From: an uncultured bacterium | GTDB lineage: Bacteria > Planctomycetota > UBA8108 > UBA1146 | Length of the DNA stretch: 64,000 nucleotides | Reading direction: 5' to 3' | NCBI GenBank assembly: GCA_913056395.1 | Contig: CAJXMG010000003.1 | Coordinates: 82,540 to 146,539 of the forward strand | In this document: positions 26,921 through 42,842 of the stretch, one piece after another | Layout of the letters: each line of letters starts with the position of its first letter | Numbering within the stretch: the first letter of the stretch is position 1 | The notes under the pieces: generated by a model | Database searches by the model: none | Seen by the model: only the letters and a program-made list of their open reading frames with translations | What the model was told of the DNA's origin: nothing | Translations under genes and position numbers: made by a program

Positions 26921-28168
26921 TCAGGAACCGGGGGGCAGAATCCAATCTGCGCCATAGACATCGACGAAGGCCGGAGGCAGACGGTCCGCAGGTTGATCTC
27001 CGGAGAGTTCCATCCACCAGGCGACCCTGGCGGGGTTTGATTCGGTGACCCCGCGGCGACCATTGAGTCCGCTGCCTCCCCACACCGTTCCGGTGAGAAT
27101 GGCATCGAAACGATCAAATCCTTGCTTCGTGGGATTCCAGATTGCAGTACCGTGCATCGTTGCGTTCACCCCGCGGGTTCTGCTGGGGAAGTGTTTCCAA
27201 TCGGTTTCACCCAACTTGTAGACCCCATCGCTTTTGGTGACAAAGTCACCGGTAATCAGCAGGTGAACCTGATCCTTCTCAACACGTTCGACTTCCACTC
27301 TGATCTGTGCTTTTTCGATATCCTGGTCAGAGAAAGGGCCTTCCTGGCCGGAGATATTGTCGACGACGTGGAAGCGTGCGAGACGCAATGCCAATGATTT
27401 CGGCAGTTCAGTGGACTCGCCCACTTCCAATTTTCGGGGCAACCATTCGGCCAGTTCTGAATCGTGGAACCAGATGTGATCCCGGTTCCAGCGACCTCTC
27501 TTATTGGGGTCATCCATTCCTGCAGGAAAATCGCGGGAGGTACTCGTCAGGACCAGACCCTTGCTGGGGTAAAAAAGTTCCCAGCGGTGTTCCGGGAGGA
27601 AGAGTTCCGGCTCTGCTGCTTTTCTTTCTTCTTCAGGAAGGGTTCTCCATGCTTCGAGACCTTTATCCATCAACTGGAGAGCCTTGTCCGCCTGCAGGGT
27701 ATTTTGTCGGGCGAGGAGTTTGCCTGAGGGACTGAAGATATAGAGTCCCTGCCAGGAGCCACCGATGGGAGTGCGACGACCGGCCACCTGCTGGCGGAAG
27801 AATTGGCATTCCCGATCGGGGTGTCGCTGCAAGCGCCAGACCTCATCGGTAGCGGGTACGAAGTTGCGGGCTTTTTCGACCACCCGTGGGTCATTCCAGA
27901 CGGACCGCCGGCCCGCCACACCGTTGCCTCACGTACAGCCGAGGGGATGTCCATTCATCAGCCACAGCAGCATCGGTTTGCCCTCGATGCCTGAGTTCTT
28001 CAATCCTTCGTGGAGGCTGGTGTGCCAGGGAATCGTCAACCAGCGATCCTCGACACCGGGGAGGATCAGTTTTTTCCACTCTTTATGGGTACGCCCCTCA
28101 AAGGTGGGCTCTTCCACCACAGCAGGGGAGAGGCAAAGTTGCATGATCAGCAGTGTCAGCAGGCTCAT
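26921..28168 (-). CDS. candidate selenoprotein: secreted thioredoxin-like protein with C-T-U motif
   Basis: Read through one in-frame TGA (27929-27931), the gene gives 415 residues. The 79 codons before the TGA and 332 codons after are in the same frame and form one protein. The N-terminus is hydrophobic (LLTLLIMQLCLS). A thioredoxin-like beta strand and active site follow: GKPMLLWLMNGHPLGCT, then Sec80, then GNGVAGRRSVWNDPRVVEK. The redox motif would be Cys78-Thr79-Sec80. The C-terminal ~250 residues have no family I recognise (WRLQRHPDRECQFF; FLPEHRWELFYPSK). The start ATG at 28168 has GGAGG 4 bases upstream. A hairpin with SECIS features follows the TGA. The alternative is a nonsense mutation or an error. 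The formate dehydrogenase in this window independently shows that TGA is used for Sec here. Confidence 0.75.
27899..27917 (-). promoter_or_regulatory. candidate SECIS element in the thioredoxin-like selenoprotein gene
   Basis: Read on the minus strand, 11 nt after the TGA an 8-bp stem forms: GGCGGGCC (27917-27910) with GGUCCGUC (27906-27899). The loop is GGC, with G first. The loop starts 19 nt after the UGA. This fits the bacterial consensus of a 4-16 bp stem, a loop with G in its first two bases, and 16-37 nt spacing. Two G-U pairs are included. Confidence 0.6.
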
Positions 28169-28266
28169 CGTTCCTCCAGGCCTCCATCGTGCCAGCAGAT
28201 CCGGTCTTTTGCCAGCGGGCTTCGGTTATGATTTGCGACGGATGTCAGCATTGGGAGGAGCCAGAA

Positions 28267-38338: not shown

Positions 38339-40081
38339 ATGAAATCACAGGTAGAGGTTCAGGATCCGATCACCGATCGCATTCTCGACGAATGGCTCGA
38401 TGAGCCGGCCCCGTTCCTGTCGATTATCCATGCGATTCAGGATCATTATGGCTATCTGCCGGAGCCTGCCCTGAGGCGTGTCAGTCAGCGGATGGATATC
38501 CCCATCAGTGATCTCTACGGCACCGTCACTTTTTACCACTTCTTCCAGCTGGAGCCGAAGGCAACCCCGGATATCCGCGTCTGCGAAAACTCGGCGTGTT
38601 GCCTCCATGACCTCGATCAGCTCTGTGAAGAGGTCGCCGGTGCTGATCTGGGAATTGAGCACTCCGGCAAGATCGAGAAGATCTCTTGCCCTGGTCGATG
38701 TGATGTTCCAGTTCCTCTGTTGATCGGTGAGAAGTTCCTCCATGGGGCCAAACCCGGTGCCATCGGTGAAGCGGTGGAGGCGACGATGCCCCTGCCACCG
38801 GAGACGGGGCAACAGGAATGCCTCTTCCGGCACATTCGCGATGGAGTCTCTGATTTGGCGATTGCCATCGAGAAGGGTGCATGGAAATCCCCTCTGCTGG
38901 CGGCGTCTGACCCTGAAAAACTGATCAGCGAATTGAAGACCAGTGGTCTGACCGGACGCGGCGGTGCGGGATTCCCCACCGGTGTGAAGTGGGAAGTGGT
39001 TCGCAATGAGAATCGCGGCCCGAAATGGATCATCTGTAATGCAGACGAGAGTGAAGTCGGTTGCTTCAAAGACAGAGTGCTGATGGCGCATACGCCTCAC
39101 GCCCTGCTTGAAGGGATGACCTGTGCGGGTCTGGTGACCGGTGCAGAAGTGGGGATCATTTACCTGCGCTGGGAATACCCGGAGATTCTCGAGTCTTTGC
39201 AAGCCGCCATCGATGAAGCAACGGCGGCGGGATACCTCGGGGAGGATGCCTGCGGCAGTGGTCGACCCTTCCGCATCGTCATTCGTCGCGGAGCGGGAGC
39301 CTACATCTGCGGTGAAGAGACCTCGCTTCTCAACTCCCTCGAAGGGAAGCACCCTTTCCCCAGAGAGAAGCCGCCTTTCCCGACGACCCATGGTCTCTTC
39401 CAGCAACCCACCATCGTCAACAACGTGGAAACATTCTGTGCGGTGCCTCCCATCGTGGAGCATGGAGGGCAGTGGTTCAGTGACCTCGGCCTCGGCGAGC
39501 AGAATGGCATGCGCATCTTCAGTGTTTCCGGAGACATTCAGCGTCCAGGGAACTACGAGGTTCCGGTGGGGACTCCCCTGCGCCAGCTCCTCGTCGAGTT
39601 TGCCGGTGGTCCGCTTCCAGGTCGGGATATTCAGGGCGTGACGATGGCCGGGGTCAGTGGAGGTCTCGTGGGAGCAGAGGATCTGGATGTCCGTCTGGAC
39701 CCCGCTTCTCTCGATGGATTGGGCGCGATGCTCGGTGCCGGAGGGATCGTGGTTCATGACGACACCCGCTGCATGATCAAGGCCGCCAGAGAAAGCATGC
39801 ACTTCCTGAAAGAAGAATCCTGCGGCAAGTGTTTCCCATGCAGGATTGGCACGACGCGCATGACCGAGATCCTCGATGAACTCGGATCAGGGCAGCCGGT
39901 ACGCGAGGGGATCATGGAAGAGATCGAGGATCTGGAAGAAGTGTTGGGTGAGACCAGTGCCTGTGGATTGGGTCTGGCCGCTCCTTACATCACCCGCATG
40001 CTGAAAAAGTATTGGCCTGATCAGATCCAGCAGAAATTGAATGGCAGCACGCAAGCCTCAGAAGGGGCCGATGATGAGTAA
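38339..40081 (+). CDS. fused NuoE-NuoF-type subunit of NAD-dependent formate dehydrogenase
   Basis: 580 residues. The N-terminal ~150 residues match NuoE: VTFYHFFQLEPK and four [2Fe-2S] cysteines, Cys82 and Cys87 (CENSAC), Cys117 and Cys121 (CPGRC). The rest matches NuoF: LKTSGLTGRGGAGFPTGVKW with NADH/FMN Gly-rich motifs, YICGEETSLLNSLEGK, and a 4Fe-4S motif ESCGKCFPCRIGTTRM near residue 497. It would carry electrons from the catalytic subunit to NAD+ through FMN and clusters. NuoE and NuoF are separate proteins in complex I, so the single chain is a fusion. The stop overlaps the start of the next gene. Confidence 0.93.
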   Translation: MKSQVEVQDPITDRILDEWLDEPAPFLSIIHAIQDHYGYLPEPALRRVSQRMDIPISDLYGTVTFYHFFQLEPKATPDIRVCENSACCLHDLDQLCEEVAGADLGIEHSGKIEKISCPGRCDVPVPLLIGEKFLHGAKPGAIGEAVEATMPLPPETGQQECLFRHIRDGVSDLAIAIEKGAWKSPLLAASDPEKLISELKTSGLTGRGGAGFPTGVKWEVVRNENRGPKWIICNADESEVGCFKDRVLMAHTPHALLEGMTCAGLVTGAEVGIIYLRWEYPEILESLQAAIDEATAAGYLGEDACGSGRPFRIVIRRGAGAYICGEETSLLNSLEGKHPFPREKPPFPTTHGLFQQPTIVNNVETFCAVPPIVEHGGQWFSDLGLGEQNGMRIFSVSGDIQRPGNYEVPVGTPLRQLLVEFAGGPLPGRDIQGVTMAGVSGGLVGAEDLDVRLDPASLDGLGAMLGAGGIVVHDDTRCMIKAARESMHFLKEESCGKCFPCRIGTTRMTEILDELGSGQPVREGIMEEIEDLEEVLGETSACGLGLAAPYITRMLKKYWPDQIQQKLNGSTQASEGADDE

Positions 40082-42842
40082 CGAAAACAGGATGACCATC
40101 GATGGTGCGGAAGTAACCTTCCAGCCGGGTGAGACCGTCCTTGAGGTCGCCCGTCGTCAGGGAGCCTTTGTTCCGACCCTCTGTTATGACGAGAGACTGG
40201 ATCCCTACGGATCATGCCGCTTGTGTGTGGTAGAGGTCGAAGGGCGACGTTTGCCCGCTTCCTCCTGCACTCTCAAGGCAGAGCCAGGAATGGAAATCCG
40301 TACCGGCAGCGATCCGATTCGCAAAATGCAGTCGACGCTGATGGAGATGGTGCTCTCGGAAAATCCGGATGACGAATGTCCCCGTTGTCGTGACATCGGT
40401 ACCTGTGAAGTCCACGACTTGGCTGAAAAGCTGGAGGTGGGCCGCGAGCGTTTCCTGGGCGCTACCAGCAATGCCTCCAAAGATGATTCAAACCCATTCC
40501 TTTTACGCGATTACGATCGCTGCATCTCCTGTTATCGCTGTGTTCGCATCTGCGATGAAGTGGAAGCGGACCACGCCATTACCATGACTGGTCGTGGCTG
40601 GAACAAGGGCATCGCCACCGCATTTGACGGCGGCTTGATGGACAGCGATTGCACCCTTTGCGGCCAGTGCATCTACACCTGTCCGACCGGTGCGTTGGCA
40701 GACAAGAAGATGGTGGGTCAGGGAGAGATCCCTGGCGAGGTGGAAGTCACTCGCAGTGTCTGTCCCTACTGTGGAACCGGTTGCTCCATCAATCTCCACA
40801 GTCGTGACGGCAAAATGATCGGTGTGACTCCGGTCCTCGACGGGCCCGTCAACGAAGGAGCGCTCTGCGTCAAAGGTCAATTCGGGTTTGATTTCGTCAA
40901 CTCGGGAGATCGATTGACGAGACCGTTGATTCGCAAGAATGGTGAGTTGACTCCCGTCTCATGGGATGAGGCTTTCGATTACACCGCCCAGAAATTGATG
41001 AGTGTGCGAGCGGATCATGGACCGAAGGCATTCTATGCCATCGCCAGCGGACGTGCTCCCGGTGAAGGTTCCTACATGCTGCAGAAGTTCACCAGGGCGG
41101 TCATGAATTCGAATCAGGTCGACAACTGTTCGCGTGGCTGACACAGTCCTACTGTCGCCGGTCTGGCGGCTTCCATTGGACGCGGAGCCATGTCGAACTC
41201 GATCCCGGAGATCGAAGACGCAAAGATGATGCTGTGTGTGGGCACCAATATGACCGAGTGCCACCCCATCATCGCCGTGCGTGTGAAAAAAGCGGTACGT
41301 AAAGGAGCCAAGCTCTACGTGGTAGATCCCCGGAAGATTCCGCTGACGGAATACGCCGATGGTCATCTGCCCTTGAAGCTCGGTTCTGACGTAGCCCTCT
41401 TCAATGCCATGGCCAAGGTCATCATCGATGAAGGCCTCGAGGACAAGGAATACATCAAAGAGCGGGTTGAGGGTTTCGAGGAGTTGAAGGCGCATCTTCA
41501 GCCCTTCACCCTGGAGTACGCCGAAGAGATTTCCGGCGTTCCTGCTGAGTTGATTCGCGAGTGTGCCATCGAGTACGCCAAAGCGGAGAGTGCGGGCATT
41601 TACTACACGTTGGGAATCACCGAGCACATCTGTGGTGTAAGTAACGTTCAGAGTCTGTGCAATCTGGCGCTGATCACCGGGAACCTCGGTAAAAAGTCGG
41701 CAGGGGTTAATCCGCTGCGAGGACAGAACAACATTCAGGGTGCCGGCGACTGCGGTGCATTGCCGAATAATTATCCCGGCTTCCAGTCCGTGGAAGATCC
41801 CGCCTGCCAGGAGAAATTCGAGAAGGCGTGGGGCGTGCCGATGGATCCCAAGAAAGGGATCACCAAGATTGCCGCTCTCGATCATGCCGTCGATGGACGG
41901 ATCAAGGCGATGTGGATCTGCGGGGAGAACACCCTGGTCACCGACCCGGATGTCAAACACACCACCAAGGCACTGGAGTCGCTGGATTTCCTCGTCGTGC
42001 AGGACATGTTCCTCACCGACACCGCCAAGCTGGCTGACGTGGTCTTCCCCGCCGCTGCTTTCACCGAGGTTGATGGTTTCTTCACCAACTCTGATCGTCG
42101 GGTACAGCGAATTCGCAAGGCCGCCAATCCTCCCGGTGAGGCGAAGCCGGACTGGTGGATCATCTCGCAGGTCGCTCAGCGCATGGAGACCCCTGTCGAT
42201 TTTGAATACCAGAGCAGTGAAGAAGTCTTCGATGAGTTGGCGGCTCTCTCGCCCATTTACGCTGGACTGACTTACGATCGTATCGAGAAGGGTGATCTTT
42301 CCTGGCCTGTTCCCGACAAGGATCACCCGGGAACCCCCGTTCTTCACGAAGGGGAATTCCTCAACGGCAAAGGCAAATTGCAGTTGCTCGATTACGTGCC
42401 CCCTTCAGAGAATCCGGATGAAGAGTATCCCTTCTACCTGACGACGGGGCGTCGATTGCCGACGTACCACAGCAACACCATGACCGGCCGCTCCGGTGGG
42501 TTCCGGATTCTGGTTCCCAATGAATGGCTGGAAATTCATCCCGCCGATTCCGATCGCCTTGGACTGGTCGATGGAGACTGGGCACGCATCAAATCCAGAA
42601 GGGGAGAGGTGATCACCCGCGTGGCGGTGACTCGCACCTCACCCCGGGGAACCGTGTTCATGAGCTTTGCTTTCCCTGAAGAGGTGATGACCAACTTCGT
42701 CACCAATCCGGAAGTGGACCCGCGCACAGAGACCCCCGAGTTCAAAGTGGCTGCGGTTTCCATCGAGCGGGTGGAAGCACCATCCGGATTGGGTGCTGAA
42801 CAGGCATTGAGAGCGGATCCCGAAGGGCCAGGCCTTGTCTGA
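40074..42842 (+). CDS. fdhA: formate dehydrogenase catalytic subunit, selenocysteine-containing
   Basis: 922 residues when the in-frame TGA at 41139-41141 is read as selenocysteine (Sec356); the frames before and after are identical. Start is ATG at 40074 (or 40071), with GAAGGGG upstream. Domains in order: NuoG-like [2Fe-2S] (CYDERLDPYGSCRLC), a CPRCRDIGTC cluster region, two 4Fe-4S ferredoxin motifs (CISCYRCVRIC, CTLCGQCIYTC), the molybdopterin 4Fe-4S motif CPYCGTGC, then the active site NCSRG-Sec-HSPTVAGLA. In formate dehydrogenases the Sec or Cys at this point ligates Mo or W. The C-terminal dinucleotide-binding domain is complete (YLTTGRRLPTYHSNTMTGRS). The sequence also resembles NADPH- or NAD-dependent complexes. 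The M48 gene starts within its stop. Confidence 0.93.
41154..41170 (+). promoter_or_regulatory. SECIS element of the formate dehydrogenase gene
   Basis: GUCGCC (41154-41159) pairs with GGCGGC (41165-41170), with loop GGUCU. The loop starts 18 nt after the UGA. The E. coli fdhF SECIS has a GGUCU loop at nearly the same distance. This is the signal SelB is expected to bind for selenocysteine insertion. Confidence 0.8.

What the first reader, a model, noticed from the sequence alone, without database searches (positions are those of the whole stretch)
26921..28168. Thioredoxin-like secreted protein with an in-frame TGA that reads as selenocysteine (C-T-U)
The two open frames on the minus strand either side of TGA 27929-27931 are in register and together form a plausible protein. 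The TGA falls directly after GHPLGCT and before GNGVAGRR, the redox-active place of a thioredoxin-type strand-loop. Eleven bases after it, a hairpin with an 8-bp stem and a GGC loop fits the bacterial SECIS rules. The known selenoprotein families I can recall do not include this layout (N-terminal C-x-U site with a ~330-residue C-terminal part), so it may be an undescribed one. The proof that Sec is used comes from the formate dehydrogenase in the same window.
Basis: partly seen in the sequence, partly recalled or inferred. Interest (0 to 1): 0.82.

Follow-up and report, generated by a model that had tools for sequence, protein, structure and literature searches.

The report
New selenoprotein family of Planctomycetota
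A gene that automatic annotation cuts off at an internal UGA codon reads through as one conserved gene found in about a quarter of sampled genomes of the bacterial phylum Planctomycetota, and it is predicted to make an exported thioredoxin-like protein with selenocysteine in its active site, a selenoprotein family I found in none of the catalogues I could check.

Summary
Minus-strand frame 26921-28168 is one 415-codon gene with an in-frame TGA at codon 80. Of 92 distinct relatives read from DNA, 83 have TGA at the same place; none of 98 matches covering the site has TAA or TAG, though those 83 genes end in TAG 39, TGA 35, TAA 9. Both sides of the TGA are under purifying selection. The hairpin meets published bacterial SECIS rules, as do 102 of 118 relatives against 51-59 in synonymous shuffles. 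The genome has selA, selB, selC, selD; TGA members track selB (85 of 234 selB+ genomes, 5 of 158 selB-). Five homologues have Cys instead. AlphaFold2 gives a confident thioredoxin domain plus a C-terminal beta domain. The window protein matches no Pfam or NCBIfam model, and a 2026 table of prokaryotic selenoproteins has no such entry. In an unrooted-by-outgroup (midpoint) tree, Cys, Ala, Asp, Trp and Ser forms lie among Sec forms, so Sec may be ancestral. Sec insertion, export and activity are untested at the bench.

The parts
26921..28168 (-). whole coding frame, 415 residues with U80, including the terminal TGA 26921-26923
   Evidence: conserved
28173..28177 (-). GGAGG, likely ribosome-binding site, 4 nt before the ATG
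   Evidence: read
28118..28168 (-). hydrophobic N-terminus, likely export signal (residues 1 to about 17)
   Evidence: sequence; inferred
27632..28048 (-). predicted thioredoxin domain, residues 41-179
27935..27937 (-). Cys78 codon, likely resolving residue
   Evidence: C at -2 in 78 of 83 TGA members, 95 of 118
27929..27931 (-). TGA, predicted selenocysteine codon 80
27899..27917 (-). SECIS-like hairpin, 8-bp stem, GGC loop
26924..27556 (-). C-terminal beta domain, residues 205-415, no clear solved relative found

Best explanation
The frame at 26921-28168 (-) is one gene of a phylum-wide family whose conserved in-frame UGA is predicted to be decoded as selenocysteine, giving a likely exported thioredoxin-fold protein that would work as a selenol-dependent oxidoreductase. 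Inferred mechanism: SelB with tRNA-Sec reads the UGA with the help of the hairpin just behind it. The signal-like N-terminus sends the protein across the membrane. Sec80 sits at the start of the first thioredoxin helix, where ordinary thioredoxins carry the first Cys of CxxC, and attacks an oxidised substrate (a disulfide, sulfenic acid or peroxide). Cys78, two residues before it, resolves the adduct as a Cys78-Sec80 selenenylsulfide, because the usual second Cys is a Gly here. The C-terminal beta domain probably selects the substrate or partner. Shown: the conserved frame and TGA, selection on both sides, the SECIS-like structure, the Sec genes, co-occurrence with selB, Cys homologues. Predicted: the fold. 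Inferred: Sec insertion, export, the redox cycle, the substrate.
For: TGA at the site in 89 of 98 tblastn matches that cover it, TAA or TAG in none (recounted; up to 7 of these matches repeat the same genes under two handles). Purifying selection on both sides: against L014 the 35 codons before the TGA have dN 0.06 with 22 third-position and 4 other differences. SECIS: 63 members; 84 of 118 against a mean of 28.65, sd 3.3; 102 of 118; 51 to 59 of 118 in five synonymous shuffles; 37 and 34 of 118 in two control windows. dS in the first 20 codons after the TGA is below that of the first 60 in 7 of 8 pairs. selA, selB, selC, selD in the genome. selB co-occurrence, 85 of 234 against 5 of 158 genomes. 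Cys in place of Sec in five homologues; P0091 E 8e-31 over 393 columns. Model pLDDT 93.5, pTM 0.90; nearest structures are thioredoxin-fold oxidoreductase domains and AGR/ERp19.
Against: No protein or 75Se evidence. Own hairpin not exceptional by energy; fold energy after the TGA is only slightly below synonymous shuffles (mean z -0.25, no better than a control window at -0.48). About half of the synonymous shuffles also meet the SECIS rules, so the rules alone prove little for one gene. In the closest pair, L009, dS is higher in the first 20 codons (0.21 against 0.12). Five genomes with a TGA member lack selB over the cut-off: G332, G272, G146, G225, G237; they are 83 to 90% complete and have selB-positive congeners, an explanation after the fact. 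Cys at -2 is missing in 5 of 83 TGA members and 23 of 118 (10 of these have it at -1). No widely shared gene neighbour. The register of the Sec with the first Cys of CxxC rests on a non-significant alignment (3ira, E 0.78) and recalled spacing in DsbD. Foldseek alone gave no match at E <= 0.001. No coordinates were at hand to measure the Cys78-Sec80 distance.
Confidence: 0.8

Rival explanations
1. The TGA is an ordinary stop: two separate reading frames or a decayed gene, with the downstream protein starting at the GTG 27917-27919 as annotation has it.
For: Annotated records start there (12 of 15 read begin within five residues after the TGA), and a GAGG lies just before the GTG in this gene.
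Against: TGA and never TAA or TAG at the site in 98 matches; strong conservation and low dN before the TGA; the GTG is not conserved, its third base is G in 36, C in 21, T in 5, A in 2 of 64; stop-free homologues with Cys cover both sides.
Confidence: 0.03
2. The UGA is read through, but as Trp or another ordinary amino acid, not as Sec.
For: One homologue has Trp at the site (P0074), and TGA-to-TGG is one step.
Against: TGA members track selB; SECIS-like structure; Cys, not Trp, in a clade of five homologues; a Cys nearly always next to the site; TGA is the terminal stop of this very gene.
Confidence: 0.03
3. It is a selenoprotein, but not a thiol-disulfide enzyme: the Sec is a peroxidase- or metal-binding site, and Cys78 is not a resolving residue.
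For: Some TGA members have no Cys at -2 or -1 (13 of 118); one member, L095, has an SCO1/SenC domain at residues 245-372 (E 1.5e-17), a family linked to copper (recalled).
Against: A Cys lies at -2 or -1 in 105 of 118 TGA members; the fold is that of thiol oxidoreductases; all six Ser forms have lost the Cys together with the Sec.
Confidence: 0.25
4. It is a divergent member of an already listed thioredoxin-like selenoprotein family (Trx7/PDZ, VPGUxxT or Sec.1).
For: Same broad fold; weak VPGUxxT matches in 2 and 3 of 65 members.
Against: No NF041199 match in 65 members at E <= 0.1, best VPGUxxT E 0.016, no PF13192 match; different motif.
Confidence: 0.07

Closest known systems
DsbD gamma domain, Thioredoxin_7, DsbH, AGR2/AGR3/ERp19 thioredoxin folds
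   Different: They use Cys (recalled); here Sec with a Cys two residues before it, Gly at the second-Cys place, and an added C-terminal beta domain.
Trx7/PDZ domain selenoprotein (NF041199, CxxU; PMC13188914 Table 1)
   Same: Thioredoxin-fold selenoprotein.
   Different: CxxU motif; no NF041199 match in 65 members.
VPGUxxT thioredoxin-like (seleno)proteins (NF041382, NF041383)
   Same: Thioredoxin-like; weak matches in 2 and 3 of 65 members.
   Different: Motif here is GHPLGCTU; matches at E 0.046 and 0.016 at best.
Thioredoxin-like selenoprotein Sec.1 (PF13192, CxU; PMC13188914 Table 1)
   Same: CxU motif in a thioredoxin-like protein.
   Different: PF13192 is not among the 12 Pfam families matched by any of 65 members at E <= 0.1.

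Membership tests
Bacterial selenoprotein (as a kind) | conserved in-frame UGA with coding sequence on both sides | tested here: met
Bacterial selenoprotein (as a kind) | SECIS just after the UGA: 3-9 nt loop, 4-16 bp stem, G in the first two loop positions, 16-37 nt spacing, MFE <= -7.5 (PMC13188914 section 5) | tested here: met
   own hairpin 8 bp, GGC, 19 nt, -11.6 kcal/mol; 102 of 118 members against 51-59 in synonymous shuffles
Bacterial selenoprotein (as a kind) | selA, selB, selC, selD in the genome | tested here: met
   selA 529 bits, selB 364.6, selD 347.6, tRNA-Sec 67.1 bits next to selD and selA; a second tRNA match at 51.7 bits was not examined
Bacterial selenoprotein (as a kind) | homologues with Cys at the Sec site | tested here: met
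   P0089, P0091-P0094
Bacterial selenoprotein (as a kind) | selenium in the protein | not testable with these tools
   needs 75Se labelling or mass spectrometry
Thioredoxin_7 (PF13899) / Thioredox_DsbH (PF03190) | sequence match to the Pfam model | tested here: not met
   window protein none at E <= 1; weak in 6 and 4 of 65 members, best E 0.00096 and 0.0077
Thioredoxin_7 (PF13899) / Thioredox_DsbH (PF03190) | thioredoxin fold of this type | tested here: met
Thioredoxin_7 (PF13899) / Thioredox_DsbH (PF03190) | CxxC with two Cys (recalled) | tested here: not met
   U80-G-N-G83 in the window; NNG or GNG after the Sec in 99 of 118 members
Trx7/PDZ selenoprotein NF041199 | model match; CxxU | tested here: not met
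   no match in 65 members at E <= 0.1; motif CxU
VPGUxxT NF041382 / NF041383 | model match; VPGUxxT motif | tested here: not met
   best E 0.046 and 0.016 in 2 and 3 of 65 members; motif absent
Thioredoxin-like selenoprotein Sec.1 | Thioredoxin_3 domain (PF13192) | tested here: not met
   not among the families matched by 65 members at E <= 0.1

The most novel reading that the evidence does not exclude
This is a selenocysteine-ancestral redox family: a phylum-wide exported selenol oxidoreductase in which the Sec is the fixed element while its partner Cys drifts between -2 and -1, and in which lineages that gave up Sec rewrote the site to Ser, Ala, Asp or Trp as readily as to Cys. It would invert the usual Cys-to-Sec story and would be nearly invisible to methods that look for Sec/Cys pairs.
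Probability: 0.5. Interest if true: 0.85.

Novelty: new variant of a known kind. Interest (0 to 1): 0.75.

Why it matters
If Sec insertion is confirmed, Planctomycetota hold a common selenoprotein family that gene prediction cuts in two and that the libraries I searched do not name. 98 of 392 sampled genomes carry it by the single-protein search, 112 of 392 by the profile (the weakest of these may be chance), some in several copies. It offers a reason to keep the Sec machinery in many of these bacteria, a distinct active-site layout (Sec at the first thioredoxin position with the Cys before it), and a test case for how Sec is lost when Cys is not the usual replacement. [quoted passage not shown] this family has few and distant ones.

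Tried and rejected
Total folding energy of the 48 nt after the TGA against synonymous shuffles gave almost nothing: mean z -0.25 (80 members), against -0.48 to +0.03 in five control windows. I then looked at where the pairs form, which gave a strong signal; that was a second statistic chosen after the first failed. Searches tested it with two further definitions on 118 members, most of the members among them, so they are not independent data. In the control windows a few pairs also exceed shuffles (z up to 5.2) but at probabilities of 0.10 or less.

Rows set aside: L059 (TGT) is a frame-shifted misalignment, not counted as a Cys form. L058 reads Asn or Pro at the site by aligner. L148 and L149 are weak and probably unrelated. 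11 of 152 profile matches do not cover the site. 13 of 131 TGA matches were dropped as duplicates. One search scored only the 7997 candidates sharing most words and listed the best 120 of 168; I read 22.

The selB table: genomes with a TGA member (90, E <= 1e-10) were listed by hand, where the TGA is inside the match and not in each case checked to be at the site; whether a genome is over the selB cut-off was judged from its E-value, since bits are listed for part of the genomes only. Related genomes are not independent, so the Fisher p of 8.6e-17 overstates the strength.

Not possible: a search outside Planctomycetota (the one genome-contig scan, used words of close relatives and gave 7 loci). 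Part 3 of section 7 of PMC13188914 was not read. The supplement of PMC4807772 that lists selenoproteins of two planctomycetes could not be opened, so a member may be listed there; only passages were read. Preprints and most subscription papers are not in the library. The tree has no outgroup and I did not look at support values.

Full report
What is there. The minus-strand frame 26921-28168 reads as one protein of 415 residues with a single in-frame TGA at codon 80 (27929-27931) and a terminal TGA. It starts at an ATG behind a GGAGG. The window protein matches no Pfam or NCBIfam model at E <= 1.

One gene, not two. A search of 5.8 billion predicted proteins gave 72 homologues, none covering more than 80% of the query. 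Of 15 that I read, 12 begin within five residues after the TGA: gene prediction cuts the gene there. With the profile A1, further records appear that end exactly at NGHPLGCT, just before the TGA (7 of 7 read). Read from DNA, 7 of 7 GTDB loci keep frame and TGA. Of 392 sampled genomes of the phylum, 98 match the single protein and 112 the profile. Of 98 tblastn matches that cover the site, 89 have TGA and none TAA or TAG. Of 92 distinct members, 83 have TGA, 6 Ser, 1 Asp, 1 Asn (uncertain) and 1 is misaligned. The 83 end in TAG 39, TGA 35, TAA 9, so an ordinary stop at the site would hardly always be TGA. The 35 codons before the TGA are under purifying selection (dN 0.06, dS saturated against L014). 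The GTG used by gene prediction is not conserved.

Selenocysteine. tRNA-Sec, selD (itself with a TGA) and selA lie side by side on contig C5, and selB on C13. The formate dehydrogenase in the window has TGA at its active site. 90 genomes have a TGA member at E <= 1e-10; 85 are among the 234 genomes with selB over the cut-off and 5 among the 158 without. The five are 83-90% complete and have selB-positive congeners. How this table was made, and its limits, are under Tried and rejected.

SECIS. The rules come from PMC13188914, section 5, read in full. The own hairpin meets all of them, and so do 102 of 118 distinct members, against 51-59 of 118 in five synonymous shuffles and 37 and 34 of 118 in two control windows. 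Pairs 17-31 to 21-27 and 23-33 to 25-31 (T of TGA = 1) have mean probability 0.27-0.35 against 0.02-0.04 in synonymous shuffles (63 members). So the family uses two hairpin registers; this gene uses the first. A plain energy test was flat.

Fold and active site. The AlphaFold2 model, with Cys for Sec and 65 rows, has pLDDT 93.5 and pTM 0.90. Residues about 41-179 resemble thioredoxin folds of the DsbD-gamma, DsbH and AGR/ERp19 type. The C-terminal domain alone has pLDDT 93.1 and no clear solved relative. A profile alignment puts the Sec on the first Cys of the CxxC of 3ira (not significant by E-value). In that register the second Cys is Gly83. A Cys lies at -2 in 95 and at -1 in 10 of 118 TGA members (summed). 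I infer a Cys-Sec selenenylsulfide as the oxidised state. N-termini look like export signals here and more clearly in P0076, P0080 and P0096; inferred.

Sec, Cys and loss. Of 11 homologues read that pass the site without a stop, 5 have Cys, 3 Ser, 2 Ala, 1 Trp. In a FastTree of 84 sequences, midpoint-rooted, the five Cys forms are one clade inside Sec forms; Ser forms fall in two separate places; Ala, Asp and Trp forms also lie among Sec forms. All six Ser forms have lost the Cys at -2 as well; two of them, L053 and L057, are in genomes without selB over the cut-off (G097, G174), the other four in genomes with it. Sec may thus be ancestral in the sampled family; lack of an outgroup and the limit to one phylum leave it open.

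Novelty. The table of prokaryotic selenoprotein families in PMC13188914 (119 families by its text; table read) has no entry with this motif. Of 65 members, few match anything in Pfam or NCBIfam: Thioredoxin_7 6, DsbH 4, VPGUxxT 3 and 2, all weak, several single chance-like matches, and one strong SCO1/SenC match in L095. Literature searches. Only passages were read of PMC12013277, PMC9312934, PMC2398784, PMC4807772 and PMC1794560.

Noticed in passing
window about 40041-42842 (+): Formate dehydrogenase alpha subunit with TGA 41139-41141 in NCSRGUHSPTVAG, a second predicted selenoprotein gene in the window.
   Followed up: partly
own genome, contig C5 62885-65603 (-): tRNA-Sec, selD and selA lie side by side, selD with its own in-frame TGA; selB is on another contig.
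   Followed up: partly
P0102-P0132: Proteins of 201-280 residues with an extra N-terminal domain; 7 of 7 read end exactly at NGHPLGCT, some on contigs of 5.7 and 7.5 Mb. In 392 genomes a search with P0110 matched only its last part, from residue 121 on.
   Followed up: partly
L122, L125, L127, L128, L133, L134, L135, L136, L138, L139: Distant relatives with TGA at the aligned site and the Cys directly before it (C-U): the Sec keeps its place while the Cys moves.
   Followed up: partly
L095:1941-3134 (+): A TGA member whose C-terminal part, residues 245-372, is an SCO1/SenC domain (E 1.5e-17): a natural fusion that may hint at the partner.
   Followed up: no
L074, L076, L082, L088, L092, L093, L094: In seven loci a gene in the same direction ends 32-64 nt before the family match; part of its sequence looks like a membrane anti-sigma factor (not tested).
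   Followed up: no
first 60 nt after the TGA, family-wide: Two hairpin registers, and lower synonymous divergence in the first 20 codons in 7 of 8 pairs.
   Followed up: partly
L053, L056, L057, L058, P0096-P0098: Relatives with a rewritten active-site loop and neither Cys nor Sec there, three of the four loci in genomes without selB over the cut-off: perhaps redox-dead.
   Followed up: partly
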